NCBI GenBank assembly: GCA_004796425.1
Contig: QZLB01000236.1
Coordinates: 1 to 55,592, forward strand
Reading direction: 5' to 3'
From: Desulfobulbaceae bacterium
GTDB taxonomy: Bacteria; Desulfobacterota; Desulfobulbia; Desulfobulbales; Desulfocapsaceae
DNA: 55,592 nt
The notes below the pieces were generated by a model. It did no database searches and was not told where the DNA came from. It saw only the letters and a program-made list of their open reading frames with translations. Positions 10,797 through 26,360 of the stretch are shown piece after piece. Every line of letters begins with the position of its first letter. The stretch's first letter is position 1. Made by a program: the position numbers and the translations under genes.

Positions 10797-11897
10797 ATGA
10801 TGGGCCAGGAGCATCTTGCACGCATCGTTATTCGATTTATCCCCGAGGCGGAAGTTCTCAGCATCGATATCTTAGGAAAGGGCAACATCAACGATACCTA
10901 TCTTGTCAACCTGAAGAACCACCGGCCACTGGTCCTGCAAAGGATAAATCCGGCAGTGTTTCCTGAACCTGAAGTAGTGGTTGACAATTCATTGAAGGTC
11001 ACCCGATTCATTGCTAATAACCGCCCTGAAAACCAAGCCGGGCTGCAGGAGATAATGATATATCCAGAGCGTAGTGGCAGAAGCTATCATCGGGATCAGC
11101 ATGGTCAGGTCTGGCGGTTAAGCAACTATATCGAAGACAGTGTGGATGGAGCATCAATCCATCCAGACACCAGGGCTTTTGAAGGGGGTCGGGCACTCGG
11201 TCTTTTTCATCAGCAGGTTTCCGGTATGGATTCATCCCAACTTGGGGTTCCCTTACCAGGGTTTCACCATCTTCCAGGTTACCGCGATGCATTTCTTGAA
11301 GCACTCTCAGCAACTGAAGCGTCTGAAGATTCGGCGCTCGCCTATTGTCTGGAACAGGCTCGGGTTAGGCAGGATGATGCCGAAATCCTGACTCGTGCCA
11401 GAGCAGAAAACCTTTTGCAGCCAGGTGTAATTCATGGCGACCCGAAACTTGACAATGTGCTGTTCGAAGGACGGAGTGGTAAAGCTCTGGCCGTGATCGA
11501 TCTTGATACCGTGTCCGAAGGATTGCGGCTCTATGATCTCGGTGATTGTTTACGTTCGTTTTGCAACCATGCAGGAGAGAAGCCGCCTGACGCTGAGATG
11601 GTGCATTTTGATGCGCCGACCTGCAAGCGGGTGCTCCAGGGATATCATGCATCAGGTACCCGGTTGGAAGATGCAGAAGTAGCACTGCTCTTTCAGTCGA
11701 TCCGACTTATGACGTATGAACTGGGACTGCGCTTTGTCACCGATTTCCTTGTTGGAAACCGATATTTCAAAGTAGACGGAGAGCGGGATAATCTGGATAA
11801 AGCACGGGTGCAATTTCAACTGCTCAGCTCAATCGAGTGTCAGCAGGAGGAGATTGAACGGATTATTGCGACACAATTTCGATCTTCAAAGGGCTAA
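10797..11897 (+). CDS. Aminoglycoside phosphotransferase-fold sugar kinase (NahK-like)
   Basis: 366-residue APH/choline-kinase-fold phosphotransferase. Catalytic loop VIHGDPKLDNVLF (HGDxxxxN) and the metal-binding AVIDLDTV are intact. The N-terminal segment GNINDTYLV and LQRINPAVFPEP matches the pattern of N-acetylhexosamine 1-kinase (NahK) and related phosphotransferases more than antibiotic kinases. It lies 6 nt downstream of glucokinase, so the pair may activate hexoses and amino-hexoses together. The stop codon overlaps that of the convergent PilZ-protein gene by 4 nt. Substrate is inferred, not shown. Confidence 0.72.
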   Translation: MMGQEHLARIVIRFIPEAEVLSIDILGKGNINDTYLVNLKNHRPLVLQRINPAVFPEPEVVVDNSLKVTRFIANNRPENQAGLQEIMIYPERSGRSYHRDQHGQVWRLSNYIEDSVDGASIHPDTRAFEGGRALGLFHQQVSGMDSSQLGVPLPGFHHLPGYRDAFLEALSATEASEDSALAYCLEQARVRQDDAEILTRARAENLLQPGVIHGDPKLDNVLFEGRSGKALAVIDLDTVSEGLRLYDLGDCLRSFCNHAGEKPPDAEMVHFDAPTCKRVLQGYHASGTRLEDAEVALLFQSIRLMTYELGLRFVTDFLVGNRYFKVDGERDNLDKARVQFQLLSSIECQQEEIERIIATQFRSSKG

Positions 11898-13279
11898 TTC
11901 TTCTGAAAGATGGATTTGTTTTCAACCGTGTAGAGATATTGTCTGATGGTTTCCTTGAGGTAGGTGCTGACTGCACTGAACTCGACTCCGATCAGTACTT
12001 CCTGGGAGCTTGTCCTGAGGTTGCGGACAATCGCTGAGATATGTTGCTCTTCCTCCAGTCCCGGCAGAATGCAATGAATGTCAATCTCTTGATTGATGAC
12101 GGCCTGAGGGAGCGTATCATTCCCCTTCGTCCGCACCAGGCATAACCCGCCACTGCTGCTCAAGTCGGTAAATGTTGCAAAATACCGTTCATCATCGTTG
12201 AGGTTCAAAGTACAGGGAATATGAATAGAGGTTCGCTTCGCCTTGCGCATTTCGTGGTAGTGGATGACCGAGGGGTACTCAAAAAAAAGCATATGATACG
12301 GTTGTTCCAGCGATCTGATGAGCTTTGATTTAAAGAGGCACAACCGACCCCGGTAGATGAATTTGATCAGGGCAATGGTATCCGCTGGTAGTGTGGTGTG
12401 GGTAACAATAAAATGGCTGGGTGTTGAGACAATGATACTGTTCTCGGGGATCAGCCCGATCAAATAGCTCTCGAGAGGGGCTTCAATGGTGTTGAATTCG
12501 ATTTTGATTTTCAGTCCGATATCAAGGGCCAGCCTCTGCCCGGTAATAGAGACCTTTTTCAAAGAATGCTGGGGTTTGACTATGGTCTGTTCCTGCTTCC
12601 GACGTTCTTCTCGTTCGTCCTTGAGTCGAAAGCCTTCCATGATCAGTGAGATAAGCGGCTTGGTTATGCTTTTTTCGCGCTGATTGTTATAGAACTTTAT
12701 TTCGATGATAACTTCGGGCCATGAAATAATTTCATAAATCGCCTGTTCACCATCAAGCTGCTCGGTCTTGGCATCCACTAGTACACCGTCGTGGATATAG
12801 ATAAATCCGATGTTGAGCCCACTGAATATTTGCAGGGTGCATGATTTTTCTTCATTTTCAAGCATCTGCAGAAAAGAGTGGATCGGAATATCCTTGACTG
12901 TTCCGGTTGAAGCCTGAGCGGCGTAGGTACTGACTTGTTCGTTAAATTGCTTGGAGGTTACCGGGTAGGTGAAGCACCCGACGGCCCCAATTTCTCTGGC
13001 CCGATCGCAGGATTTGCCGCCGGAAGTGGAGATCGCCAGGAGTGGAATGTACGGTAGGGTGGTGCTCAGCTCTTTAATAAATGCGCAATCTTCGGCGTCA
13101 TTTAAGGTTGTATTACAGATGATCAGATCAACCGTACCTTTTTCCAGGGTTGAATGGGCGCTTTCTTCATCCTGGGCCGAGATGATGGTATATTCTTCCT
13201 GACTTAACCGGCAGGTATCAATGAGGGACTCGAGTCGCTCAATGTTATCTTCTATAATCAACAGTGTTTTCATCGCCAT
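11894..13279 (-). CDS. Pseudo-receiver / DUF4388 / PilZ signalling protein
   Basis: 461 residues with three recognisable parts. Residues 1-120 form a CheY-like receiver (LLIIEDN, DLIICN, LLAIST), but the phospho-acceptor Asp is Asn (N56) and the conserved Lys is replaced (TYPVT), so it is probably not phosphorylated. Residues ~125-215 resemble a DUF4388/PATAN domain (LQIFSGLNIGFIYIHDGVLVDA). Residues ~250-340 look like the YcgR-N flagellar-brake domain, followed by a PilZ domain with RKAKRTSIH and DLSSSGG, a c-di-GMP binding signature. It probably couples c-di-GMP to motility or surface behaviour by protein contact. ATG 13279 or the second Met two codons later is the start; no strong SD is visible. 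Confidence 0.75.
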   Translation of the reverse strand: MAMKTLLIIEDNIERLESLIDTCRLSQEEYTIISAQDEESAHSTLEKGTVDLIICNTTLNDAEDCAFIKELSTTLPYIPLLAISTSGGKSCDRAREIGAVGCFTYPVTSKQFNEQVSTYAAQASTGTVKDIPIHSFLQMLENEEKSCTLQIFSGLNIGFIYIHDGVLVDAKTEQLDGEQAIYEIISWPEVIIEIKFYNNQREKSITKPLISLIMEGFRLKDEREERRKQEQTIVKPQHSLKKVSITGQRLALDIGLKIKIEFNTIEAPLESYLIGLIPENSIIVSTPSHFIVTHTTLPADTIALIKFIYRGRLCLFKSKLIRSLEQPYHMLFFEYPSVIHYHEMRKAKRTSIHIPCTLNLNDDERYFATFTDLSSSGGLCLVRTKGNDTLPQAVINQEIDIHCILPGLEEEQHISAIVRNLRTSSQEVLIGVEFSAVSTYLKETIRQYLYTVENKSIFQKN

Positions 13280-15169: not shown

Positions 15170-15223
15170 GGAATTAAAGGCTGTTAGGCATCTACGGTCG
15201 TAGATTTTTTATCTCGCGTGCAG

Positions 15224-15257
15224 GGCGGTTTTCCTTCGGGGAAGCCGCCTTTTTTTA
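15224..15257 (+). terminator. Rho-independent terminator after yajC
   Basis: GC-rich stem (GGCGG from 15224 with CCGCC to 15249, extended by G-U and A-U pairs) around a CCTTCGG-type loop, followed by a run of seven T residues (15250-15256). Confidence 0.88.
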
Positions 15258-15326: not shown

Positions 15327-15361
15327 TGATACCCTTCCGATAAGGACGACAGAGGGTATCA
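15327..15361 (+). promoter_or_regulatory. Inverted repeat enclosing the ribosome binding site of the T1SS operon
   Basis: TGATACCCT (15327-15335) pairs perfectly with AGGGTATCA (15353-15361). The right arm contains the Shine-Dalgarno GAGGG and the A of the ATG at 15361, and two G-U pairs could extend over the start codon. In RNA this would block initiation; in DNA it could be an operator. A short competing stem, CCTT/AAGG (15333-15345), would exclude the long one. Confidence 0.45.
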
Positions 15362-17070
15362 TGTTTAAAATGCAGAATAAATTCATGAACGGTCGACCCA
15401 GGATGAAACTTCCGAGAAACAGTGTCCATCTCATCCTGGCAACTATTGTCATCAACATCCTTGGCCTTGCCATGCCATTGATGATGTTGCAGACCTATGA
15501 CCGGATTCTGCCCAATCATGGCATAGGTAGCCTGGTGCTGCTGCTTTCAGGTGTCGCCATCGCTGCAGTGCTGGAGGTCATCCTGCGACTGGCCCGCTCT
15601 TATCTGACGGGCTGGGCCGGTGCGGTTTTTGAACATGCAACCTCTTACCGTGCCCTTGAGCATATGCTCGATGCAGATATCCAGGCCTTTGAAGGCCAAG
15701 GATCAGGCGCCTATATTCAGAAAATGGCAGCAATTTCAAGGCTGCGCATGTTTTATTCCGGCCAGGCGCTGATGACCATCGTTGATCTGCCCTTTGTCCT
15801 GATCTTTCTGGCCCTGATCTTCTATATCGGTGGCAACCTGGTGTTTGTACCACTCACCCTGTTTATGATTTTCTGTCTGACGGCGTGGCTTGTCGGGGTG
15901 CGCCTGAAAAGCGAGGTGATTGAAGAGGATCGCAATGATAAAATACGATCTAACTTTCTCATCGAGACGCTTACCGGGATCCATTCAATTAAATCTCAAG
16001 GGCTTGAGCAGTTTTTTCTCAGGCGCTTTGCCCGTTTGGGCGATGCCATTTCTGCAGCGCATTTCCGAGTCGCACTTTCCAATAGCCTGGCCTCGAGTGC
16101 AGGGATGTTATTTGGTCAGATCATGACCATATCGGTGGTTACCTTTGGAGCGCTTAAGGTCATCAATGGGGATTTTGGCGCCGGTGGCCTTGCCGCCTGC
16201 CTGCTTCTTTCCGGCAGGATTATGCAGCCGGTTCAGCGTGCGTTGGGATTATGGACACGCTTTCAGAATTATTTTGTCGATCGCCAGGAACTCCAGGAGA
16301 TTTTTGCCCTGCCGGTTCCCACAGGTAAAACCTCCGATTCGATGTTGCAACCCAAAGGTATTATCCGCTGCACAGATCTGGCTTTTTCCTATCGGGCAAG
16401 TGACACCCCACTTTTCAAAGGACTCGATCTCTTTCTCGGTCCCGGCTCTTCGGTATCACTGGTGGGGCAGGAATCACGAGGCAAAACAACCTTTTTGCTC
16501 TTGCTGGCCGGCCTGATGGAAGCAGATGGGGGTAAGGTTACCATTGATGGGGCAGAACCAAGGGTGGTATCGCCGGAAGAACGGGCACAAAGGATCGGTT
16601 ATCTTCCTGAAAAAGGGGTGATCTTCAATGGTACCATTATGGATAATTTGACCTTTTTTGGTGCCATACCGGTTGACGATGCGATAACGGCGGCCCGCCA
16701 TCTCGGTATTGTTGATGGGGTTGCTTTGTTGCCCAACGGTTTCAAAACAACAATCACCGACTCGGTGACCGATCCGATCCCCCCGGGATTCAAGCAGAGG
16801 ATTGCGATTGCCCGTACCCTTGCCCGAAAACCAAAAGTGATTCTTTTTGACAATGCCGATCGCGGCCTTGATCGGCAGGGGTACAACCTGGTTTTCAAAG
16901 TACTTGGCAGATTAAAGGGCAAAGTTACCATGGTTTTTGTTTCGGATGATCGAAACATCCTGCGGCTTGCCGATCAGGAATATCATATCGTCGATGGGAA
17001 ACTGAAAGAACAGCCACCGATTGATTCAAAAGTATATTCGGTACTTCCCTTCAGGGAGTTAAAGGTATGA
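15361..17070 (+). CDS. Type I secretion ABC half-transporter 1, degenerate ATPase
   Basis: 569-residue exporter half: a transmembrane domain (about residues 20-300) followed by an ATP-binding domain. Walker A is intact (G369-T376, GQESRGKT). The LSGGQ-like signature is not recognisable (IPPGFKQR at 473-480), the Walker B catalytic Glu is Asn (D497-N498) and the switch His is Ser (S528). It therefore probably hydrolyses ATP poorly and pairs with the next gene product, whose start codon overlaps its stop (ATGA). Unlike that partner it has no C39-like N-terminal domain. It belongs to the PrtD/LapB-type T1SS permease-ATPase group. The whole operon is led by an unusual hairpin at 15327-15361. Confidence 0.83.
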   Translation: MFKMQNKFMNGRPRMKLPRNSVHLILATIVINILGLAMPLMMLQTYDRILPNHGIGSLVLLLSGVAIAAVLEVILRLARSYLTGWAGAVFEHATSYRALEHMLDADIQAFEGQGSGAYIQKMAAISRLRMFYSGQALMTIVDLPFVLIFLALIFYIGGNLVFVPLTLFMIFCLTAWLVGVRLKSEVIEEDRNDKIRSNFLIETLTGIHSIKSQGLEQFFLRRFARLGDAISAAHFRVALSNSLASSAGMLFGQIMTISVVTFGALKVINGDFGAGGLAACLLLSGRIMQPVQRALGLWTRFQNYFVDRQELQEIFALPVPTGKTSDSMLQPKGIIRCTDLAFSYRASDTPLFKGLDLFLGPGSSVSLVGQESRGKTTFLLLLAGLMEADGGKVTIDGAEPRVVSPEERAQRIGYLPEKGVIFNGTIMDNLTFFGAIPVDDAITAARHLGIVDGVALLPNGFKTTITDSVTDPIPPGFKQRIAIARTLARKPKVILFDNADRGLDRQGYNLVFKVLGRLKGKVTMVFVSDDRNILRLADQEYHIVDGKLKEQPPIDSKVYSVLPFRELKV

Positions 17071-19250
17071 ACCAAAGCATGACGGACATCGGCCTTGAAT
17101 TGCGCAACAAGATTGAGCCGTTTGGCTGGCTCAGTCGCACCGGTCCGCCATCTCCCTTTGCCGAATGTATTGCACCGCTCCTTACCGCCCTGAAATGGAA
17201 TGGGGAGATTCATCAATTATGTGAATCATTGCCACATTATCCGGATCAAATGGATCGGGTCGATATCATTAACGTTTTCTCAAATCTGCATTACTCGATC
17301 GGTCACGCCCGAATTAGTAAAGATTCATTTGATGAGAGGCTCTGTCCATGTCTTGTCGTTACTGACCAGGGGCAGGAGAACGAGCATCCCTATGTGCTGT
17401 TTAAATCGGGTCAGGATGAGATTTTGGCATACGATGGAGCAAGTGGATCACTGATTTCGTTCTCCATGATTTCAGCGCGTCGTATTGATATTTACTCCTT
17501 TGAACCGTTAACTGAAGAATCGCTGCATAAAAGCAAGATCAGTGATCAGGTTGATGAAAGTCCGCGACGCTGGTTCACTAAGCTGCTGTTGCGCTTTGGC
17601 CATGTTGGTAAACAGATCTTGTTGTCGAGCTTTCTGATTAACCTGCTCGCGCTTGTTTCTTCACTCTATGTAATGACCGTTTACGACAAAGTAATTGGCA
17701 GCCGGGCTCCCGACACCCTTGTTTACCTTGGGTTTGGGGCAATTCTTGCGATCTTGTTTGAAACAGTATTGCGTTATCTGCGGGCCAGAAGCCTTGCCTT
17801 TTTTGGTGTTCGGCTTGATGCGATAATTACTACGGCCATCTTTGAGCGGCTCCTGTTTCTACCTCCCCGCATTGTTGAAAACTCATCCACCTCGGTGCAA
17901 ATTGCTCGGTTGAAAGATTTTGATTCGGTACGAAATTTTTTTGCCGGCCCCCTTGGAATCAGTGCCCACGAATTGCCGTTTACCGTGATCTTCATCGTGG
18001 CTATCTGGATTGTTGGTGGGCCGCTTGCCAAAATTCCGCTTCTGTTGATCGTGGCTTACGGGCTGCTTGGCGCCCTGATGCTTCCGCGAATTCAAGCCTC
18101 CACAGAGGCCGGTGCAGCAGCGGGAGCTCAGCGACAGGCCCTGATGGTTGAAACCATGCGCAAAATGCGGGCCTTGAAAATTAACGGAGTTAAGAACTCC
18201 TGGTTGAGCCGTTTCAAAGAGTTATCAGGAGTCTCATCATATGCCTCATTCAACACGTCCCTGCAGACAGCTTTTGTCGAAAGTATCTCCTATGGACTAT
18301 CAGTTGCAGCCAGCGCCACGACTCTTACGTACGGTATTTTTCTGGTCTGGGATGGGGTGATTACAACGGGTGGTTTGATTGCCACCATGATGCTTATCTG
18401 GCGGGTGATTGGGCCGCTCCAGGCGACCTGCAATGCGTTGGTACGGATTCGCTACCTGGGGAGAAGTATCGTACAGGTCCATAACCTGATGAGCACGGAA
18501 CCCGAGCATAAGCCAACGATTTCTGAAGATTTTTTAACGCTTAAAGGCGATATAACGTTCTCTGGTGTTGGTCTTCGTTATTCAGCAGACCGGGCGGCTT
18601 TGTACAGCGGTATGAGTCTGGAGATCGAAAAAGGAGAAATTGTCGCGGTCAGTGGGAGCAGCGGGTCCGGAAAATCTTCTTTTCTCAAGCTGATCATGGG
18701 GCTCTATCCTCCGCAAATGGGGGCGATTAGAATCGATGGGGTCGATATCAGGCAACGTGACCCGGTTGGGTTGAGAAGAAATATCGCCTATGTACCGCAG
18801 ACACCTGAGCTCTTTCATGGCTCCATTGAACAGAATTTGCGAATGTGCCGTCCGGAGGCTTCACCTCAGTATCTGGAAGAAACGCTCGAGTTGGCTGGTG
18901 CCTTAACCGATGTAAAAAAATTGAAAGATGGCTTGGGAGCCTTCATCGGTGATTACCGCTCCGAGCAGCTTTCCTCAAATCTGACCTATCAGTTGACACT
19001 GGCGCGGGCCTATCTTCGTGATGCGTCAATCATGCTGGTCGATGAAATGCCGCCGTCTCTGTTAAGCCACACGACGGCTGAAAATTTTAGAGCATTTTGT
19101 GAGCAGTATCGGACCAATAAAACCATCGTGTTTGTGACAGACCGTGAGGCGGATATCTTGCGGGCTGACCGACTCGTCTATCTCACCGGCAGCGGTCAGG
19201 TGCTAACCGGTAAACCCGCTGAATTGATTGCAGCGCTCAAAGGTGAATGA
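17067..19250 (+). CDS. Type I secretion ABC half-transporter 2 with C39-like N-terminal domain
   Basis: 727 residues. Residues ~1-150 resemble the C39-peptidase-like domain of LapB/HlyB-type exporters, but no catalytic Cys/His pair is evident, so it likely docks cargo rather than cutting it. The membrane domain spans ~190-480. The ATPase has Walker A G530-S537 (GSSGSGKS) and a normal Walker B D659-E660, but the signature reads LSSNLTYQ (635-642) rather than LSGGQQ-like, and the switch His is Thr (T691). Overlaps both neighbours by ATGA, implying coupled translation in equal amounts and a heterodimer with half-transporter 1. Confidence 0.86.
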   Translation: MNQSMTDIGLELRNKIEPFGWLSRTGPPSPFAECIAPLLTALKWNGEIHQLCESLPHYPDQMDRVDIINVFSNLHYSIGHARISKDSFDERLCPCLVVTDQGQENEHPYVLFKSGQDEILAYDGASGSLISFSMISARRIDIYSFEPLTEESLHKSKISDQVDESPRRWFTKLLLRFGHVGKQILLSSFLINLLALVSSLYVMTVYDKVIGSRAPDTLVYLGFGAILAILFETVLRYLRARSLAFFGVRLDAIITTAIFERLLFLPPRIVENSSTSVQIARLKDFDSVRNFFAGPLGISAHELPFTVIFIVAIWIVGGPLAKIPLLLIVAYGLLGALMLPRIQASTEAGAAAGAQRQALMVETMRKMRALKINGVKNSWLSRFKELSGVSSYASFNTSLQTAFVESISYGLSVAASATTLTYGIFLVWDGVITTGGLIATMMLIWRVIGPLQATCNALVRIRYLGRSIVQVHNLMSTEPEHKPTISEDFLTLKGDITFSGVGLRYSADRAALYSGMSLEIEKGEIVAVSGSSGSGKSSFLKLIMGLYPPQMGAIRIDGVDIRQRDPVGLRRNIAYVPQTPELFHGSIEQNLRMCRPEASPQYLEETLELAGALTDVKKLKDGLGAFIGDYRSEQLSSNLTYQLTLARAYLRDASIMLVDEMPPSLLSHTTAENFRAFCEQYRTNKTIVFVTDREADILRADRLVYLTGSGQVLTGKPAELIAALKGE

Positions 19251-20575
19251 CCATGAAGACAATCAAACGGGCTGATATTAACAAGCAACTCCGCCTGCTG
19301 GGGCAATCAGCAGTGCTTGAAGAGGCGCAAACCCCCTATATGATCAGGTTTACCATGCTGGTAATCTGTCTGGCGGTTTTTGCATTTATCGGCTGGGTCT
19401 CGGTTTCCCGGATCAAGGAAGTGGCAAAAACGGTCGGCGAGATTGTGCCATCGGGCCATATACAGGTCGTACAGCATTTGGAAGGGGGCATTGTTGAATC
19501 CATCGCGGTGCGTGATGAGCAATATGTGAAAAAGGGTACGATACTCATACAAATCAGTGGTGAATCAATTCGGGCCGAATATGAGAGGGTGAGCGTCAGG
19601 CTGGAAAATCTTCGCGATAAGCGTGATCGGTTGCTGGCTTACATCGCCTCGACCAACGGCGGGGACGGGCAAAAAGAGATACCCGTCTCGGCAAGTCAGC
19701 AGCAGATATTGGAGGGGATGCTGCAATCTTACCAGACAGAGAACTCAATCATCCAGGAACAGATCGTCCAGAAGCAGCAACAGATCAGGCTTTTGGAACA
19801 GGAACGTTTAACCGAGCAGAAGAATCTTGAAATTGCCGAGGCTTCCTTTGCGACCCAGCAGAGCCTGTACCAGGAGCGGCTGGTACCAGAGCATGTGTAT
19901 CTTAACGCGCTTCAGGAAAAAAATGCCCGCAGTGGTAGAATTGCTGCGATTGATATCGAGAAGGAAAAAGCTGAAAAGGCCTTGCAGGAGTATCGTCTGA
20001 GGCTGCGGGCGATTGGCAGCAGCGCCCGGGAGGTTGCCCTTGAGCAGGTTGAGGCGATTGAAAGTGAAATCAAGGAAAACCGTACGGTCCTGGAACGACT
20101 GAGCAAGCAATCAGAGCGATTATCACTCCGGTCTCCGGTTGATGGTATCGTTAAGGGACTGGAAATACACACCATTGGAGGGGTTATTGGTGCCGGGCAA
20201 AAACTGATGGAAATTGTGCCGCTTGATAATGAACTGGTTGCAGAAGTTAAAATCAAACCGGTTGATGTTGGTCATATCAAAGTTGGTGATTCAGTAAATG
20301 TAAAAATTACTTCCTATGACTCTTCACGATATGGTTCAATAGAAGGAACGGTGCTGGGAATTTCTGCGACGACCTTCATTGAAAGTGGTGATACACCGTT
20401 TTATCGTGGCAGGATTAGATTAATGAAGAATTATGTGGGCGAGGATCGGAGCAAAAACCGAATCCTACCCGGCATGATCGTCAATGCAGACATAATAACC
20501 GGTGAGAAGTCGGTGCTTTCTTATCTCCTGAAACCTATTCATTTATCATTAAGATCAGCATTTGCTGAACGGTGA
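19247..20575 (+). CDS. HlyD-family periplasmic adaptor (membrane fusion protein)
   Basis: 442 residues. One N-terminal transmembrane helix (about 30-50), the lipoyl half-motif VVQHLEGGIVESI typical of HlyD/PrtE/LapC, a long coiled-coil hairpin (~105-290, Gln/Glu-rich), the second lipoyl half LRSPVDGIVKGLEI and a β-barrel ending near GMIVNADIITGEKSVL. It bridges the inner-membrane ABC pair to a TolC-type channel. The start ATG overlaps the stop of the preceding gene; the next gene starts within or just after its 3' end. Confidence 0.92.
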   Translation: MTMKTIKRADINKQLRLLGQSAVLEEAQTPYMIRFTMLVICLAVFAFIGWVSVSRIKEVAKTVGEIVPSGHIQVVQHLEGGIVESIAVRDEQYVKKGTILIQISGESIRAEYERVSVRLENLRDKRDRLLAYIASTNGGDGQKEIPVSASQQQILEGMLQSYQTENSIIQEQIVQKQQQIRLLEQERLTEQKNLEIAEASFATQQSLYQERLVPEHVYLNALQEKNARSGRIAAIDIEKEKAEKALQEYRLRLRAIGSSAREVALEQVEAIESEIKENRTVLERLSKQSERLSLRSPVDGIVKGLEIHTIGGVIGAGQKLMEIVPLDNELVAEVKIKPVDVGHIKVGDSVNVKITSYDSSRYGSIEGTVLGISATTFIESGDTPFYRGRIRLMKNYVGEDRSKNRILPGMIVNADIITGEKSVLSYLLKPIHLSLRSAFAER

Positions 20576-20583
20576 GGACTCGA

Positions 20584-21534
20584 ATGGCTGTCGCATCTTA
20601 CCCTGTAAAATCTAGTATTGGACTTCTTGCAGTAGACGATAATCCCACCTCGTTGAGGCTGCTCGAGTCGATGTTGACACGAAGCGGGCGATACCAGGTG
20701 AATACTGCTGTTGATGGTAAGAGTGCTCTGCAGTTTCTCTATGATAATCCCGAATCGGTCGATATTATCCTGCTGGATCGAATGATGCCTGAAATGGATG
20801 GCCTCGAGGTCTGCGAAGTCCTCAAAAGTGATCCTGAACTCAGAAAGATACCGGTGATCATGCAGACCTCTGCTGATAAGCCTGAAGAGATCAGTGAAGG
20901 GATTGAGGCCGGGGTCTTCTACTACCTGACCAAGCCGCTCAATGCTCAAACTTTGCTCTCCGTTGTCGAGGCGGCAGAACAGCAGGTTCGACAATACCGG
21001 CTGCTTCGTGATGAACTTCTGCAGCGCCGACATGGTTTTGGTCTGGTCCAGATTCTCAAGTGCAACTTGCAGACATTGGAAGAGGCGGAGAGCCTCTCAA
21101 GTTTTCTGGCAAATTTTTTCCCCGATCCGGATCAAGTCATCACTGGCATTTCAGAACTGATGATCAATGCAGTCGAACATGGCAATCTGGCAATCAGCTA
21201 TGAGGAGAAAAGCAAACTTGTCAGCGCTAACAAATGGCAGGATGAAGTAAAAACCCGTCTTGCTGATCCTCAGTTCGCCAACCGTGTCGCGTCGGTAGTC
21301 TTTGAGAAGCGCGAGGATGCCTACTATTTGCAAATCACCGATCAGGGAGATGGTTTTGATTGGAAACAGTTTCTAGAAGTTGATCCTTCACGAGCCACCC
21401 ACAACCATGGTCGTGGAATTGCCATGGCTAATATGCTCAGTTTTGACAAGCTGCTTTACAACGAGAAAGGAAACCAGGTAACCGCAGTGGTTTCAATAAG
21501 TAGTGACGAGCAAAAAGAAGATTTTTGGGGATAG
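20584..21534 (+). CDS. Response regulator fused to RsbW-like histidine-kinase-fold ATPase
   Basis: 316 residues. Residues ~10-125 are a complete receiver: VDDN, phospho-acceptor Asp in ILLDRMMPEMDG, Thr/Ser in MQTSAD and Lys in YLTKPL. A linker follows, then residues ~185-305 form a HATPase_c_2 domain like anti-sigma-factor kinases: N-box ELMINAVEHGN, G1 DQGDGFDW and G2 NHGRGIAMAN. Such proteins phosphorylate or bind STAS anti-anti-sigma partners; none is in this window. Location inside the T1SS operon suggests it controls secretion or expression of the cargo. I prefer ATG 20584 (GTGAGGA upstream) to the GTG at 20572. Confidence 0.82.
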   Translation: MAVASYPVKSSIGLLAVDDNPTSLRLLESMLTRSGRYQVNTAVDGKSALQFLYDNPESVDIILLDRMMPEMDGLEVCEVLKSDPELRKIPVIMQTSADKPEEISEGIEAGVFYYLTKPLNAQTLLSVVEAAEQQVRQYRLLRDELLQRRHGFGLVQILKCNLQTLEEAESLSSFLANFFPDPDQVITGISELMINAVEHGNLAISYEEKSKLVSANKWQDEVKTRLADPQFANRVASVVFEKREDAYYLQITDQGDGFDWKQFLEVDPSRATHNHGRGIAMANMLSFDKLLYNEKGNQVTAVVSISSDEQKEDFWG

Positions 21535-21746: not shown

Positions 21747-24626
21747 ATGGCAGAGAACCCCAAAAAAAACCAACGTGATGATTCCCAACAGCAGAGCAGT
21801 GGGCAGGATAGTGCTCAAGAGTGGTTCGAATATCAGGATGAGACCGAAAGCGACGAGTTGCGCAATGCCCGAGAATGGGAAACGGATCATCGTCTGGTTG
21901 ATGATAATACTGCACTTGGAAATATCCACCAGGGCTCTGATGAAACACAGGATCTAACAAAGAGCCAGGGTTCCCCATCGACTACTGTTTCTGAAATTGA
22001 AGGGGTCGTGCTGCCTGACAGTGAAAGCGCTCAGCCTCGAGCGGAAGTGAGCGGAGCTGAACCACTTGCAGAAGAGCAGCGGGCCAGCGAGGGTGATGTA
22101 GCAGCCGTTGGCCAGGAAGGTGAGCCCGATAAAAGCAGTGAAGCGGTGGGACCACAGTTGAGTGATCTTTCGCTGGACTTGCCCGATGATTTGGTTACCG
22201 CCAAACCATCAGAAGCAGATCCAGAGCAACCCTCCTCCGATAGAGCAGATAGCCAACCGCAAAGCGGAACAGGACACCGAGCAGCAACAGAATCATCATC
22301 CCAGCCGGAAGTGGCCGAAACCGTTGCTGCTGGCACACCAACAGAGTCACCTGCCACCACGGCTCCACGGATCACTCCTGACCCTGAGGAAGAAGCTGCT
22401 GCCCAACACACGCAGGACGTGAACGAAAAACCAACCGCTGAAGGTAAAGAAACGATAAAAAGTCTTGAGGATCAGGAGGTGGTTTTGACCACCGATACCT
22501 TTGGTTTCCAGGATCAGGATGGCGATCAGTTGTCTGCCGTCAGGTTGGTTGATCCGCTGGAAAACGGTGCGTTGTATTTACACGGAGTGGCTGTTGGGCC
22601 CGGACAAGCGATCTCTGCAGCGGATATCGAAGCTGGTAATTTGAGCTATCGACCGGATAATCATGGCAGTGGTGAAAATTTCGATACCGCAACCTTTCAA
22701 GTCAGTGATGGTAATCAGTGGTCGGATTCAACGGCGGAAATTTCCTTCGATGTGACACCGGTTGCCGATGCGCCTGAGCTTGACGTCAGTTTCGGTACGG
22801 CCCAGCGGGTTGATGTTCCCGGCACGGGCGAAATTGTTGATAAAACGATTACCACTCAAAACTATCAGCAGACTGACGGTGGCTTCAGGGTCCTCGGGCG
22901 TACCGTTGATGCGGAGGGGAATTTGTCCGAGGCCACACTTGAGAATGTCGGGACCGGCCAGAATGGTTTCGCACCACAGGGAACCAATGCGGGACCCGAT
23001 TATCAACTGGGGGTCAATCTTGAGCATCAGGTCAGTGAAGAACTGATCATTGAACTGGATCAGGCAACCGCTGAAGCCAGTGTGACAATCGGGCGTCTAT
23101 TTGCCAGTGAACACGGTAGTGAGGGGCATGAAGCCGGTTTCTACACCCTGAAAAATGGTGACGAAGTGGTCGGCCACGGCTCCTTTCACTCCACATCCGG
23201 CAATGAAATGCAGCTTGATTTATCAGGTGATAATGGGGTTTCATTTGACCAGATCGTCTTCACTGCCAAGACCACCTATGAAGATGGCTCGATTCGGGGC
23301 AATGATGCCAGCGATTATGTCGTTCGCGCTGTTTCGTGGAAAACCGAGGAGCAGATGGACCAGGTATGGGAGACATCGCTGAATATCGGTACAGAATTAG
23401 TCGATGGTGACCAGTCAGAGATTCTTGAGCCGGTCATTATCAGCGGTTTACCACCCGGGGCACAATTATCGGCCGGTACCATGATCAGTGGCGGTACCCC
23501 CGCAGAATTTCAGGCAACAAATTTGCAGATTGCCCACGAGAGCCCGGCCCGGATCGTTTTTGAAGGGGAAACTGCCGGTTATCGAAACAGCCTTGGGTAT
23601 TACAAGATTGATCCTGAGACCGGTAAGATCACCGATGTTGAAATGCTCTGGGAAAATGCATCACTTAAGGGCAGCGGCGGTGACCTGATCAAAGGCGAGA
23701 GTACACTCGATATAGATATTTCTGCCGGAGATCAGGTCGGGTTTTTTCTGGTGGCTGATGGCGCCAGGAAAAACAATTTCGACAATCTGGAAGAAGGACA
23801 TTTCGAGTTCCGAGAAAGTGATGGCTCAACGGCCTCGGCTACCAGTTCGGTGCCTGAACTGGTTTTTGTCGCCAAAGACGGGAGTGAATCGGTCATAAAA
23901 GGTAATATTTATCATACCGCGGAAAACGATGAGAACTTGTCCTTGAATCCGGATGGCATCAGGCACACCAGGGGTGATCTTGACCTGGATGATGGAAAGA
24001 TCACCATTGGTTTTGAGGATTTGAAAGGGGGGGGTGATCGTGATTTTGACGATTCCATTTTCACCGTCGAACTTGGTGCTGAAAATGTTGAACAACTGGC
24101 CTATGAGAATGGCGGATACAGTACCTGGGAGGTGGACCCGTCAGAGCTGGAAGGCCTCACCATGACAATTCCCGGAGAGTATCAGGACAGTTTTGATCTG
24201 TCTGTCACCTCGGCAGCTTCTGAAGTTGACGGCGGTACAGCCTCAACCGCAGTATCATTAACAGTCAATGTCACAGAAGATGGTGTTGCGGTTGAGGACG
24301 TGCAAACAGAGGTTATTGCTGATCCCATCGAGGTATCGGGGGTGTCGATGCAAACTGGTAGCAGTGGGGAGGATGATAGCTCAAATCTCAACCAGTTTGC
24401 GGCTACCGAAGAAAATGGTAATGGGCTCTCTGATTCGCTCAACTCTTTTTCAACCGCTTCATCATCAAGTGATGAAGATGTACCATCACTTGATGAGCAG
24501 GTGGCTGCTGCCGAGCAGGAAGAACAGGAAGCACAAGAGAATGGCCTGAATGAAGCAGAAGTGTTGATCGTTGAGGAGAACGGCGGTTCTAATGGTGAAC
24601 AGGAGGATGTTACCCCCGTGGTCTAA
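21747..24626 (+). CDS. Large acidic secreted protein, predicted T1SS cargo (cadherin-like and DUF4114-like domains)
   Basis: 959 residues, strongly acidic, no signal peptide or membrane segment. Residues 1-235 are low-complexity (Ser, Glu, Gln, Pro) and probably disordered. Residues ~238-340 match cadherin-like/VCBS-type repeats of T1SS adhesins (DQDGDQLSAVRLV ... ISAADIEAGNLSYRPD). A central region (~345-580) has no domain I can name. Residues ~600-780 resemble DUF4114, ending with the Ca-binding-type GDRDFDDSIF (763-772). The tail is Glu/Asp/Ser-rich and may hold the uncleaved secretion signal. No RTX nonapeptides are seen. A strong SD (GGAGAGGAG) precedes ATG 21747. Position between the ABC/HlyD genes and tolC marks it as the dedicated substrate. 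Function (adhesin, matrix or S-layer-like) is unknown. Confidence 0.78.
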   Translation: MAENPKKNQRDDSQQQSSGQDSAQEWFEYQDETESDELRNAREWETDHRLVDDNTALGNIHQGSDETQDLTKSQGSPSTTVSEIEGVVLPDSESAQPRAEVSGAEPLAEEQRASEGDVAAVGQEGEPDKSSEAVGPQLSDLSLDLPDDLVTAKPSEADPEQPSSDRADSQPQSGTGHRAATESSSQPEVAETVAAGTPTESPATTAPRITPDPEEEAAAQHTQDVNEKPTAEGKETIKSLEDQEVVLTTDTFGFQDQDGDQLSAVRLVDPLENGALYLHGVAVGPGQAISAADIEAGNLSYRPDNHGSGENFDTATFQVSDGNQWSDSTAEISFDVTPVADAPELDVSFGTAQRVDVPGTGEIVDKTITTQNYQQTDGGFRVLGRTVDAEGNLSEATLENVGTGQNGFAPQGTNAGPDYQLGVNLEHQVSEELIIELDQATAEASVTIGRLFASEHGSEGHEAGFYTLKNGDEVVGHGSFHSTSGNEMQLDLSGDNGVSFDQIVFTAKTTYEDGSIRGNDASDYVVRAVSWKTEEQMDQVWETSLNIGTELVDGDQSEILEPVIISGLPPGAQLSAGTMISGGTPAEFQATNLQIAHESPARIVFEGETAGYRNSLGYYKIDPETGKITDVEMLWENASLKGSGGDLIKGESTLDIDISAGDQVGFFLVADGARKNNFDNLEEGHFEFRESDGSTASATSSVPELVFVAKDGSESVIKGNIYHTAENDENLSLNPDGIRHTRGDLDLDDGKITIGFEDLKGGGDRDFDDSIFTVELGAENVEQLAYENGGYSTWEVDPSELEGLTMTIPGEYQDSFDLSVTSAASEVDGGTASTAVSLTVNVTEDGVAVEDVQTEVIADPIEVSGVSMQTGSSGEDDSSNLNQFAATEENGNGLSDSLNSFSTASSSSDEDVPSLDEQVAAAEQEEQEAQENGLNEAEVLIVEENGGSNGEQEDVTPVV

Positions 24627-24635: not shown

Positions 24636-24803
24636 GGTCTCCTGAGTAAATCAAGACGCACCATACCTGCTGCAGGTTGTTCACCGATCAGGTTGGAACA
24701 ATCTTTTGTCGTGACAAGTGGGGTTCAATCGCATACCATTGGGAGCATTGGTTTATGAAATAATCGGTTTCTTTTGATTAAACCCTTTGTTTCCCAGAAA
24801 TTT

Positions 24804-26360
24804 ATGACACCTTCTACGTTTCCTGTGGGCCATCTTGTTTCTCTTTCGCGATTATCCGTGAAGCTTTTTCCCCTCTATTGCATTCTGCTGATTCTTTTTT
24901 CAACCAGCCAGGTTTGGGGGAATCAGGCACAAGCGGATCCCGGGAAGTTATCTGTTACCGGGCAAAAGCCTTCTGAAATTGGAGAGCTCCTCTCTTATGT
25001 GGCGGTGTTGCCCGATGATTCAAAACACCGAGATGAAATTGAAGCACTTTATGACGAACTGTTTGAAGCAGTCCTGAAAAGTTCACCCCAGATTACCATC
25101 GCCCTGCATACAAAGAATCAGAAACTGGCTCAAAGACATACATCCTTTGCCGAAAGGTGGGCACCGCAGGTCGATTTTTCTCTCTCGAGAGAACATAAGT
25201 TCAATCATGACGAAGATGACAATAACTCATCCAGTAGCGCCAATGAATTTCAGGATGGCAGCGAAGTTACGGAGTGGTCGTTCAAGGCGGATTTTCCTCT
25301 TTACCGCAAGCGGACATCGGTAGCCCTTCAAACCGCAGAAGAGGAGCTCTCCGTTGCTGATCATACCTTTTTTGTAAGAGTCAACGAACTGGGTGCGCAG
25401 CTCCATAAACTGCTCGGTGATTATATGGTGGCGGTGTACCGGCTTTTAAATCTGCAAAATTCCGTGAAGCTTTCAGCCGAGTATGTGGGACGTATTGAGC
25501 GAGGGTATCAACTCAGGGATCAAACCCGGTTGGCCATGCTCCGGGCCCAGGCAAACTTGAAGGAACTCGAAGCTCGGATCGATATCGAGCGCCAGAGGCA
25601 GGATACAACATTGCGCGCGTTACTGGATTTTACCGGCCTGGATTCAGACGATGAATTTATCCATCGATTGAACTGGCTGCTGCGCGAGGAAGTGCAGGCC
25701 GCTGAAGTGATATCCGGTTTTGCCCAGGTTGACGAGACCCTGCGTGGAGCCGAGATATACCTGAGTCAGATGGACCAGGATCAGCTGCTGGCTTTTTATA
25801 AGGCCAATAGTTTTTTATATCGGCAGCTTGAGTTGGAAAAGGCACAGGCCATGGCACGATCTGAACGTTTTGTCCAGGGTGAGTATCCCGATCTGGCTAT
25901 TAAAGGAGATGTGGGACGAAAAGAGGATACCAGGTTTGAGGATTTTATCGCCGAAGGCAGCCTTGGCTTGTATCTCAATGTGCCGGTATTCAGCGGTGGT
26001 ACGTTGGCGCACAATATTCGCACGAAATCAGAAGCTCAGCAGGTTGCAGTGGAGCAGTTTTACGATCAGAACCGCAAGTTGTTTAACCAGATCATGAATC
26101 GGCGCAAAACCATCATAAGCTTAAGCGAGATTTACCAGAAACAGAAAATAAACCTCCTTCAACAGGCTGAGATTGTAGAGCTTTCAATCAAATCATACAC
26201 CATAAAGCAGACCTCCATGCAGGATCTGCTGACCAGCAAGAATCGATTGATCAACGCGAAGAATCAGTTGATAAAATCGACCATGGACATTTCCAGCCAG
26301 GTACAAATGTTCCTCTGGGAACTTGGTGTATTACCTTCAGGTACGATCGAGGCTGAGTAG
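24804..26360 (+). CDS. TolC-family outer-membrane efflux protein
   Basis: 518 residues from ATG 24804. The N-terminus has a signal peptide with a hydrophobic core (LFPLYCILLILFS) and likely cleavage after SQVWG. The rest is helical with the two internally similar OEP halves; each carries long amphipathic stretches and a β-strand signature (VDFSLSREHKF in the first half, LAIKGDVGR and LGLYLNVPVFSGGTL in the second). It should form the outer-membrane duct for the T1SS just upstream (LapE/PrtF-like). An alternative TTG start at 24774 would put ten residues before the signal peptide. No strong SD is visible for either start. Confidence 0.86.
   Translation: MTPSTFPVGHLVSLSRLSVKLFPLYCILLILFSTSQVWGNQAQADPGKLSVTGQKPSEIGELLSYVAVLPDDSKHRDEIEALYDELFEAVLKSSPQITIALHTKNQKLAQRHTSFAERWAPQVDFSLSREHKFNHDEDDNNSSSSANEFQDGSEVTEWSFKADFPLYRKRTSVALQTAEEELSVADHTFFVRVNELGAQLHKLLGDYMVAVYRLLNLQNSVKLSAEYVGRIERGYQLRDQTRLAMLRAQANLKELEARIDIERQRQDTTLRALLDFTGLDSDDEFIHRLNWLLREEVQAAEVISGFAQVDETLRGAEIYLSQMDQDQLLAFYKANSFLYRQLELEKAQAMARSERFVQGEYPDLAIKGDVGRKEDTRFEDFIAEGSLGLYLNVPVFSGGTLAHNIRTKSEAQQVAVEQFYDQNRKLFNQIMNRRKTIISLSEIYQKQKINLLQQAEIVELSIKSYTIKQTSMQDLLTSKNRLINAKNQLIKSTMDISSQVQMFLWELGVLPSGTIEAE

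What the first reader, a model, noticed from the sequence alone, without database searches (positions are those of the whole stretch)
15361..19250. T1SS exporter built from two half-ABC proteins, both with non-canonical ATPase motifs
Most T1SS use one homodimeric ABC protein. Here two overlapping genes encode unequal halves. Half 1 lacks the C39-like domain, the signature, the Walker B Glu (Asn498) and the switch His (Ser528). Half 2 keeps the Walker B Glu (E660) but has LSSNL at the signature position and Thr691 at the switch. In a heterodimer neither nucleotide site would be textbook. This may be a distinct T1SS subtype with slow, regulated or adaptor-assisted ATP use.
Basis: partly seen in the sequence, partly recalled or inferred. 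Interest (0 to 1): 0.72.

Follow-up and report, generated by a model that had tools for sequence, protein, structure and literature searches.

The report
Paired secretion pump with half-broken motors
A bacterial protein-export pump appears to be built from two unequal partner proteins whose ATP-burning parts have decayed in complementary ways, so that together they keep at most one, non-standard, motor site; similar pairs occur in several bacterial phyla, and in one genus the two are fused into a single protein.

Summary
Half 1 (15361-17070) and half 2 (17067-19250) are intact, overlapping ABC half-exporters of a type I secretion operon (HlyD, response regulator-HATPase, cadherin-like protein, TolC-like). 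The switch histidine is replaced by Asp529 and Asp692, not Ser528/Thr691; half 1 also lost the Q-loop Gln and Walker A glycines. I compared 25 pairs from Desulfobulbales, Bdellovibrionota, Alpha- and Gammaproteobacteria. None has an LSGGQ-like signature (half 1: 0 of 25; half 2: 0 of 24 readable), against 39 of 41 comparison exporters. The halves form two clades (SH-aLRT 98, 99) and diverge in step (r = 0.986, 19 loci); in Azospirillum they are fused. Conservation is complementary: half 1 keeps a non-canonical signature (IPPGLKQR-like) and D-loop but not Walker A; half 2 keeps Walker A but not signature or D-loop. This fits one selected composite ATP site in an obligate heterodimer. A few relatives lack the catalytic Glu, or the Walker A Lys, in both halves. 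Best reading: an asymmetric heterodimeric T1SS subtype with one non-canonical ATP site. Two-ABC T1SSs (MARTX RtxB/RtxE) and degenerate heterodimers (TmrAB, Pdr5) are known; I found no description of this combination. ATP use is untested.

The parts
15361..17070 (+). Half 1: CLD-less ABC half-exporter (569 aa), degenerate NBD
   Evidence: orthologues
16465..16491 (+). Half 1 Walker A, degenerate (GQESRGKTT, residues 369-377)
16609..16611 (+). Half 1 Q-loop position, Glu417 instead of Gln
16777..16791 (+). Half 1 signature position, IPPGF (residues 473-477); [IVL]PPG[LF]KQR in 17 of 19 core half 1 proteins
16852..16854 (+). Half 1 Walker B catalytic-Glu position, Asn498
16945..16947 (+). Half 1 switch position, Asp529 instead of His
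17067..19250 (+). Half 2: ABC half-exporter with N-terminal C39-like region (727 aa)
17154..17591 (+). Half 2 N-terminal C39-like region (residues about 30-175), approximate limits
   Evidence: TIGR03375 match from profile position 2; alpha/beta region before the first long helix; no Pfam C39 match
18654..18680 (+). Half 2 Walker A, canonical (GSSGSGKSS, K536)
18798..18800 (+). Half 2 Q-loop Gln578, canonical
18969..18983 (+). Half 2 signature position, LSSNL (degenerate and variable)
19041..19046 (+). Half 2 Walker B D659-E660, canonical
19140..19142 (+). Half 2 switch position, Asp692 instead of His
19247..20575 (+). HlyD-type periplasmic adaptor (442 aa), overlaps half 2 by 4 bp
   Evidence: TIGR01843, 342.5 bits, above cut-off 208.65
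20572..21534 (+). Response regulator receiver + HATPase_c_2 protein (320 aa), overlaps adaptor by 4 bp; conserved in the operon of this branch
21747..24626 (+). Presumed secreted substrate: acidic 959-aa protein, Cadherin_3 + DUF4114, no strict GGxGxD repeat match
24774..26360 (+). TolC-like outer-membrane factor (528 aa)
   Evidence: TIGR01844 below cut-off; OEP above cut-off
15222..15251 (+). Terminator-like hairpin upstream of half 1; suggests a transcription unit separate from the gene before it
   Evidence: consensus match only

Best explanation
The two genes encode the two obligate halves of one heterodimeric type I secretion exporter. Half 2, the only half with a C39-like region, supplies Walker A, Q-loop and Walker B Glu of the single nucleotide site still under selection; half 1 supplies that site's signature (IPPGFKQR here, mostly IPPGLKQR in relatives, instead of LSGGQ) and D-loop in trans. 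The other composite site (half 1 Walker A + half 2 signature) is abandoned and probably at most binds nucleotide structurally. With HlyD and the TolC-like protein the exporter moves the acidic cadherin-like protein encoded next to it to the surface. The altered signature and missing switch His probably make turnover at the remaining site slow or conditional; the response regulator-HATPase may gate expression or activity. Shown here: orthology, linkage, fusion in a distant relative, complementary conservation, purifying selection in close relatives. Inferred: complex formation in this species, substrate identity, ATPase behaviour, role of the regulator.
For: Adjacent in 19 of 19 core loci and adjacent or fused in the 6 plasmid loci read. 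Natural fusion half 1-half 2 in Azospirillum lipoferum and A. ramasamyi. Half 1 and half 2 clades at SH-aLRT 100/100, 98/99 with Azospirillum, Palleronia and Phaeobacter added (motif columns removed in both), 95/98 on transmembrane domains with Vibrio fortis too; quick trees without bootstrap. Distances correlate r = 0.986 over 171 locus pairs. NBD entropy over the core loci: half 1 signature more conserved than 99% of same-length NBD windows and Walker B/D-loop than 96%, but 57% of windows are as conserved as its Walker A; half 2 Walker A in the top 9%, while 66-73% of windows are as conserved as its Q-loop, signature and Walker B/D-loop stretches. Half 2 keeps K in 19 of 19 and D-E in 15 of 17 readable core loci. 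dN/dS about 0.07 (L044/L047) and 0.10-0.13 (two Phaeobacter species; 0.15-0.18 for the NBDs alone). Half 2 model resembles PCAT1 and HlyB.
Against: No biochemistry. The IPPG-type signature and the His-to-Asp change could make even the kept site inactive. Two core-branch relatives, L066 and L068, have lost the half 2 catalytic Glu (Asn, Gln), and half 2's Q-loop and Walker B/D-loop stretches are not conserved as stretches. The half 1 structure model is poor (pLDDT 60) and no heterodimer was modelled. The correlation of distances is not corrected for species history. The fused proteins lie in a distant branch (about 34% identity of half 1), and long branches make the placing of the plasmid proteins uncertain. 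The window's own genes were not in the dN/dS comparison. One locus, L053, has only a half 1 fragment and no half 2.
Confidence: 0.72

Rival explanations
1. Ordinary asymmetric heterodimer of the TmrAB/TM287-288/Pdr5 kind: one degenerate site, one working consensus-like site with normal fast turnover; the odd signature and missing switch His are tolerated and cosmetic.
For: Half 2 keeps K, Q, D, E in the window and in 15 of 17 readable core loci; Azospirillum half 2 also keeps His. The split of motifs between subunits follows the published logic of degenerate sites (PMC7756269, passages, section 7).
Against: In the review text seen, the degenerate site is one of two and the other is the canonical one; here neither half has an LSGGQ-like signature in any of the 25 pairs. 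The adjacent ABC pair L004/L006 of this same genome does keep LSGGQ in one subunit and D-E plus His in the other.
Confidence: 0.16
2. The window's own pair has given up productive ATP hydrolysis: it works as a nucleotide-binding or nucleotide-free gate, with energy from another source or from substrate folding outside.
For: Relatives: in L066, L068 and Vibrio fortis neither half has the catalytic Glu (N/N, N/Q, R/N), and in two Phaeobacter species neither has the Walker A Lys; the Phaeobacter genes are nonetheless under purifying selection (not measured for the other three).
Against: In the window and most core relatives half 2 keeps Walker A, Q and D-E. No alternative energy source is known here.
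Confidence: 0.07
3. Two separate homodimeric exporters encoded side by side, each with its own cargo or step.
For: Most T1SS ABC proteins are taken to be homodimers (general knowledge).
Against: Fusion, one adaptor gene per pair, co-divergence, and complementary loss of motif conservation that leaves neither homodimer a complete maintained site.
Confidence: 0.03
4. Decaying genes of a degenerating operon.
For: Locus L053 shows such a wreck.
Against: Open frames in the other loci read, contig ends aside; low dN/dS in the close pairs tested, NBDs included; the same substitutions recur across species.
Confidence: 0.02

Closest known systems
LssB/LapB-type T1SS ABC exporter (NCBIfam TIGR03375)
   Same: Best-scoring NCBIfam family for both halves (354.9 and 427.6 bits), same domain order in half 2, HlyD and TolC-like partners
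   Different: Both halves far below the 693.1-bit cut-off; two unequal subunits; no LSGGQ; half 1 without C39-like region
MARTX exporter RtxB/RtxE (four-component T1SS of Vibrio)
   Same: Two ABC proteins, both reported to appear necessary, with one HlyD-like adaptor (PMC3034196 passages); suggested to form a heterodimer (PMC4316617 passages)
   Different: There the adaptor gene lies between the two ABC genes, and PMC4316617 places them in the Group 2 transporter clade; cargo is an RTX toxin. Motif state of RtxB/RtxE not examined here
Exporters with one degenerate site (TmrAB, TM287/288; Pdr5 as full-length case)
   Same: Motifs split between two NBDs so that one composite site is degenerate; Pdr5 site 1 also has Walker B E to N (PMC7756269 passages)
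   Different: There the second site is the canonical one; they are not known as T1SS protein exporters with this operon (recalled, except that PMC8277102 passages, call TmrAB-based export a T1SS)
NHLP bacteriocin exporter pair (TIGR03796/TIGR03797)
   Same: Two ABC genes at one locus, one with a C39 peptidase motif (Legionella example in PMC6959600 passages)
   Different: Weak match only (half 1 188.8/172.7 bits, half 2 168.8/167.9, cut-offs 853.3/709.4)
PrtD/AprD-type T1SS exporter (TIGR01842)
   Same: Half 1 shares the CLD-less architecture
   Different: Half 1 scores 240.5 against cut-off 510.15; the PrtD-type protein L025 (627.5 bits) keeps LSGGQ, D-E and His

Membership tests
Type I secretion ABC exporter (broad) | ABC_membrane + ABC_tran in each half | tested here: met
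Type I secretion ABC exporter (broad) | Operon with HlyD-type adaptor and TolC-like factor | tested here: met
   HlyD above cut-off, TolC-like by Pfam OEP (TIGR01844 below its cut-off)
Type I secretion ABC exporter (broad) | Secretes the neighbouring protein across both membranes | not testable with these tools
   needs experiment
LssB/LapB family TIGR03375 | Score above curated cut-off 693.1 | tested here: not met
   354.9 and 427.6 bits
HlyB family TIGR01846 | Score above curated cut-off 725.55 | tested here: not met
   257.9 and 287.3 bits
PrtD family TIGR01842 | Score above curated cut-off 510.15 | tested here: not met
   240.5 and 235.1 bits
Heterodimeric ABC exporter with one degenerate site | One composite site with degenerate motifs split over both NBDs | tested here: met
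Heterodimeric ABC exporter with one degenerate site | Other composite site keeps consensus Walker A, Q, E, H and trans LSGGQ | tested here: not met
   Walker A, Q and E are kept, but the half 1 signature is IPPGF and the half 2 switch is D692
Heterodimeric ABC exporter with one degenerate site | Physical heterodimer | tested here: inconclusive
   fusion in Azospirillum and co-divergence; no direct test
MARTX RtxB/RtxE system | Gene order ABC-HlyD-ABC and MARTX cargo | tested here: not met
   order is ABC-ABC-HlyD; the neighbouring protein matches only Cadherin_3 and DUF4114
MARTX RtxB/RtxE system | Common ancestry of the ABC pair | not tested
   no RtxB/RtxE sequence was fetched

The most novel reading that the evidence does not exclude
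A phylum-crossing T1SS lineage in which the exporter pair has been freed step by step from textbook ATP hydrolysis: from pairs with one near-complete site (Azospirillum) through pairs with one non-canonical site (this window) to pairs with no catalytic Glu (two Bdellovibrionota loci, Vibrio fortis) or no Walker A Lys (Phaeobacter, where purifying selection was measured) in either half, so that in some members large surface proteins are exported with ATP binding alone or with another energy source. This is a claim about the lineage, not about the window's own pair.
Probability: 0.2. Interest if true: 0.88.

Novelty: new variant of a known kind. Interest (0 to 1): 0.64.

Why it matters
Asymmetric ABC motors are known, but T1SS exporters are usually treated as symmetric homodimers with two working sites. 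A natural series of paired exporters, from one near-complete site to apparently none, lets one ask how much ATP hydrolysis protein secretion needs. The two-gene and fused versions make the stoichiometry controllable in laboratory strains.

Tried and rejected
My own first tally made the same off-by-one for the H column and was redone. Pseudogene reading: rejected on dN/dS for the pairs tested. L022/L024 as half 1 relatives: they lack LSGGQ and His but keep D-E, no second T1SS-type ABC exporter was seen in the stretches read, and they fall outside the half 1 clade. Half 1 structure model: too poor to use. Promoter scan: not above shuffles (13 found, shuffle mean 11.6). Own-genome search for the regulator: the other matches cover only query residues within 4-176, that is the receiver part, so no second RR-HATPase is evident. 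P. tunicata BapP tandem ABC genes (PMC12153261 passages): come with a LolD-like ATPase, not this. Literature for a heterodimeric or doubly degenerate T1SS: search listings, and passages of six papers, gave only the MARTX, NHLP and general cases above; the library holds open-licence papers only. Boardman & Satchell 2004 and Lee 2008 are not held and are cited only through papers that quote them.

Rows left out: of 16 loci, L050 (same record as L039), L053 (half 1 fragment, no half 2) and L055 (33 residues at a contig end) were not in the 19-locus core set. Half 2 is cut by the contig end in L041 and L045; these two were dropped from the half 2 entropy count (17 loci). Plasmid loci were not a random draw: of 1,158 matching records 25 were listed, and I read six stretches (H1, H4, H7, H10, H22, H30), mostly picked because the annotation hinted at a pair; listed records annotated as single T1SS permease/ATPase (such as H5, H21, H23) were not read. 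Two other Azospirillum, nine other Phaeobacter and five other Vibrio records were seen only as tblastn rows. The 41 comparison exporters are those that matched half 1 or half 2 profiles among loci already fetched, mostly Desulfobulbales relatives; five or six of them are MsbA-type rather than T1SS proteins.
Full report
What is there. In the window, 15361-17070 and 17067-19250 encode two ABC half-exporters (569 and 727 aa) that overlap by 4 bp; half 2 overlaps an HlyD-type adaptor (19247-20575) by 4 bp, and that overlaps a response regulator-HATPase gene (20572-21534) by 4 bp. A 959-aa acidic protein with Cadherin_3 and DUF4114 matches (21747-24626) and a TolC-like factor (24774-26360) follow. 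Both ABC proteins match ABC_membrane and ABC_tran and score best, among NCBIfam families, with the T1SS family LssB, TIGR03375, at 354.9 and 427.6 bits against a cut-off of 693.1. Half 1 matches that model only from position 152, so it has no C39-like region; half 2 matches from position 2.

Motifs. Half 1: Walker A GQESRGKTT, Q-loop E417, signature position IPPGF, Walker B D497-N498, switch D529. Half 2: Walker A GSSGSGKSS, Q578, signature LSSNL, Walker B D659-E660, D-loop lost, switch D692.

The pair is conserved. The nearest orthologues of half 1 found in the held genomes are in G022 (67%) and G124 (59%); G124 has the contig length and place of Desulfogranum mediterraneum DSM 13871. A genome-contig scan gave 16 loci, 15 with titles of Desulfocapsa, Desulfobulbaceae, Desulfobulbus, Desulfogranum, Desulfobacterales or Deltaproteobacteria and 1 Bdellovibrionota at 40%. 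In the order, 15 of 257 genomes carry half 1 at 1,000 bits or more; the other 6 of the 21 genomes with a match have it in 713-755-residue frames at 307-318 bits. In the phylum sample 2 of 395 genomes, own included, have it (one search scored three candidates per genome). In the sample of L052's phylum 2 of 290 genomes have it, in three places. I assembled 19 core loci: the window, G022 (L038), G124 (L039), 13 of the 16 scan loci, L066 and L068 from the Bdellovibrionota search, and G826 (L089). All 19 have half 1 followed by half 2. The adaptor follows in the 16 loci that reach it (14 whole, L049 and L066 cut by the contig end), and the RR-HATPase in the 14 that reach it. HATPase N and G boxes are kept in these 14 (the last box is cut by the contig end in L048), although the receiver Asp is lost in L052. 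L053 is the exception to linkage: a half 1 fragment (residues 5-114), the adaptor's last 72 residues and the regulator remain, with half 2 gone.

Beyond this branch. A protein search of plasmids found more distant relatives. In Azospirillum lipoferum and A. ramasamyi one gene of 1,378 or 1,375 codons contains half 1 then half 2, with an HlyD adaptor next. Palleronia, two Phaeobacter species and Vibrio fortis have separate adjacent genes followed by an HlyD adaptor. No RR-HATPase is found in these six stretches. With the catalytic motif columns removed, half 1 proteins (Azospirillum, Palleronia and Phaeobacter included) form one clade at SH-aLRT 98 and half 2 proteins another at 99; with transmembrane domains only and Vibrio fortis added, 95 and 98. 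These are quick trees without bootstrap, and long branches make the exact places of the plasmid proteins uncertain. The fused gene is the strongest evidence that the two halves work as one heterodimer.

Motif counts over 25 pairs. Half 1: Walker A Lys in 15 of 25; Q-loop Gln in 1 of 25; catalytic Glu in 5 of 25 (Asn in 19, Arg in 1); switch His in 0 of 25; LSGGQ-like signature in 0 of 25. Half 2: Walker A Lys in 23 of 25; Gln in 19 of 25; catalytic Glu in 20 of 23 readable; His in 4 of 23 readable; signature in 0 of 24 readable. Comparison set of 41 ABC exporters from loci already fetched: Lys 41, Gln 41, Walker B Asp 41, Glu 40, His 38, signature 39. The two without the signature, L022 and L024, are CLD-less proteins with no T1SS-type partner seen nearby.

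Complementary conservation. Over the core loci (19 for half 1, 17 for half 2), half 1's signature is more conserved than 99% of same-length NBD windows and its Walker B/D-loop than 96%, but 57% of windows are as conserved as its Walker A. The signature reads [IVL]PPG[LF]KQR in 17 of 19. Half 2 is roughly the mirror image: Walker A in the top 9%, while 66%, 72% and 73% of windows are as conserved as its Q-loop, signature and Walker B/D-loop stretches, although D659 and E660 themselves are kept in 15 of 17. In 15 LssB and 9 HlyB-type comparison proteins both Walker A (top 3% and 14%) and signature (top 3% and 2%) are well conserved. From the established geometry of ABC dimers (one site = Walker A/B of one NBD plus signature of the other; PMC7756269 passages), the conserved elements fall together in one composite site, half 2 Walker A/B with half 1 signature and D-loop, and the drifting ones in the other. 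That half 1's D-loop belongs to the kept site is from general knowledge of these dimers. This pattern is what an obligate heterodimer with a single selected site predicts; two homodimers would not predict it.

Limits of ATP use. The kept site has no LSGGQ and usually no switch His, so I expect slow or conditional turnover, but nothing here measures it. Against any simple one-working-site rule, L066 and L068 have no catalytic Glu in either half (N/N and N/Q), V. fortis neither (R/N), and in Phaeobacter the Walker A Lys is missing in both halves. Phaeobacter halves are nonetheless under purifying selection between two species (dN 0.041, dS 0.408 for half 1; 0.047, 0.361 for half 2; NBDs 0.042/0.284 and 0.045/0.252), and so are Desulfobulbaceae halves (L044/L047: 0.024/0.334 and 0.027/0.381). 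More distant pairs had saturated dS, and selection was not measured for L066, L068, V. fortis or the window. These lineages are the basis of the bold reading that hydrolysis by the pair can be dispensed with.

Substrates. The proteins encoded after the regulator in five further loci (stop-to-stop frames: G022 2,386 aa, G826 1,901, D. mediterraneum 1,514, L068 1,430, L052 1,755 and cut by the contig end) are acidic with 0 or 1 strict GGxGxD match each, and the four of them run against Pfam are cadherin/Ig-like (L089, L050, L068, L052; L089 also has one RTX match). Several Desulfobulbales ones share an N-terminal stretch like WF...LKAKxWxT...DD...GNxHxG and an acidic C-terminus, by eye. That they are the cargo is inferred from gene order.

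Comparison with the known. A T1SS with two ABC proteins is known: RtxB and RtxE of MARTX systems, both of which appear necessary (PMC3034196 passages), suggested to form a heterodimer (PMC4316617 passages). Their gene order differs, and PMC4316617 puts them in the Group 2 clade; I did not fetch or test their motifs. Heterodimers with one degenerate site are common, and the review reports Pdr5 site 1 with K to C, E to N, H to Y and LNVEQ (PMC7756269 passages; section 7), but there the other site is the canonical one. I found no paper describing a paired T1SS exporter in which neither site is canonical (searches; open-licence library only). I therefore call it a new variant of a known kind.

Models. 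AlphaFold of half 2 (17 sequences) gave pLDDT 79.7, and its best PDB matches are PCAT1 and HlyB. Half 1 gave pLDDT 60 and was not used for a fold search; by sequence profile its best solved relative is HlyB.

Noticed in passing
L022 1195-2868; L024 1435-3105: CLD-less T1SS-type ABC proteins with LPLGIRRR/LPTGIRKR at the signature and no switch His, next to an HlyD adaptor, with no T1SS-type partner ABC seen nearby: another non-canonical T1SS motor.
   Followed up: partly
L104 2920-6704 (Vibrio fortis plasmid): Paired T1SS ABC proteins in which half 1 has E-R and half 2 D-N at Walker B, so no catalytic Glu in either.
   Followed up: partly
L102 6001-9791 and L103 6001-9791 (Phaeobacter plasmids): Paired T1SS ABC proteins with the Walker A Lys missing in both halves, yet under purifying selection.
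   Followed up: yes
window 20572-21534: Receiver + HATPase_c_2 protein conserved in the operon; HATPase boxes kept in 14 loci while the receiver Asp is lost in L052, suggesting the ATPase part matters more.
   Followed up: partly
window 21747-24626 and substrates in L038, L042, L047, L051, L054, L089, L050: Presumed substrates share a similar N-terminal stretch and, where complete, an acidic C-terminus with few or no RTX repeats: possible T1SS signal or retention module. Seen by eye.
   Followed up: partly
L053 1443-2788: Operon wreck: half 1 cut after about 114 residues, half 2 and most of the adaptor gone, a foreign ORF in between (looks like a transposase remnant; not tested).
   Followed up: partly
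window 50249-52378: SpoIIE-type phosphatase with a PDC sensor region, a possible but unlinked partner class for a HATPase_c_2 protein.
   Followed up: no
L092 1529-4324: By eye, the window's upstream neighbours (tgt-like gene and an opposite-strand regulator like window 11894-13279) also precede half 1 in this relative.
   Followed up: no
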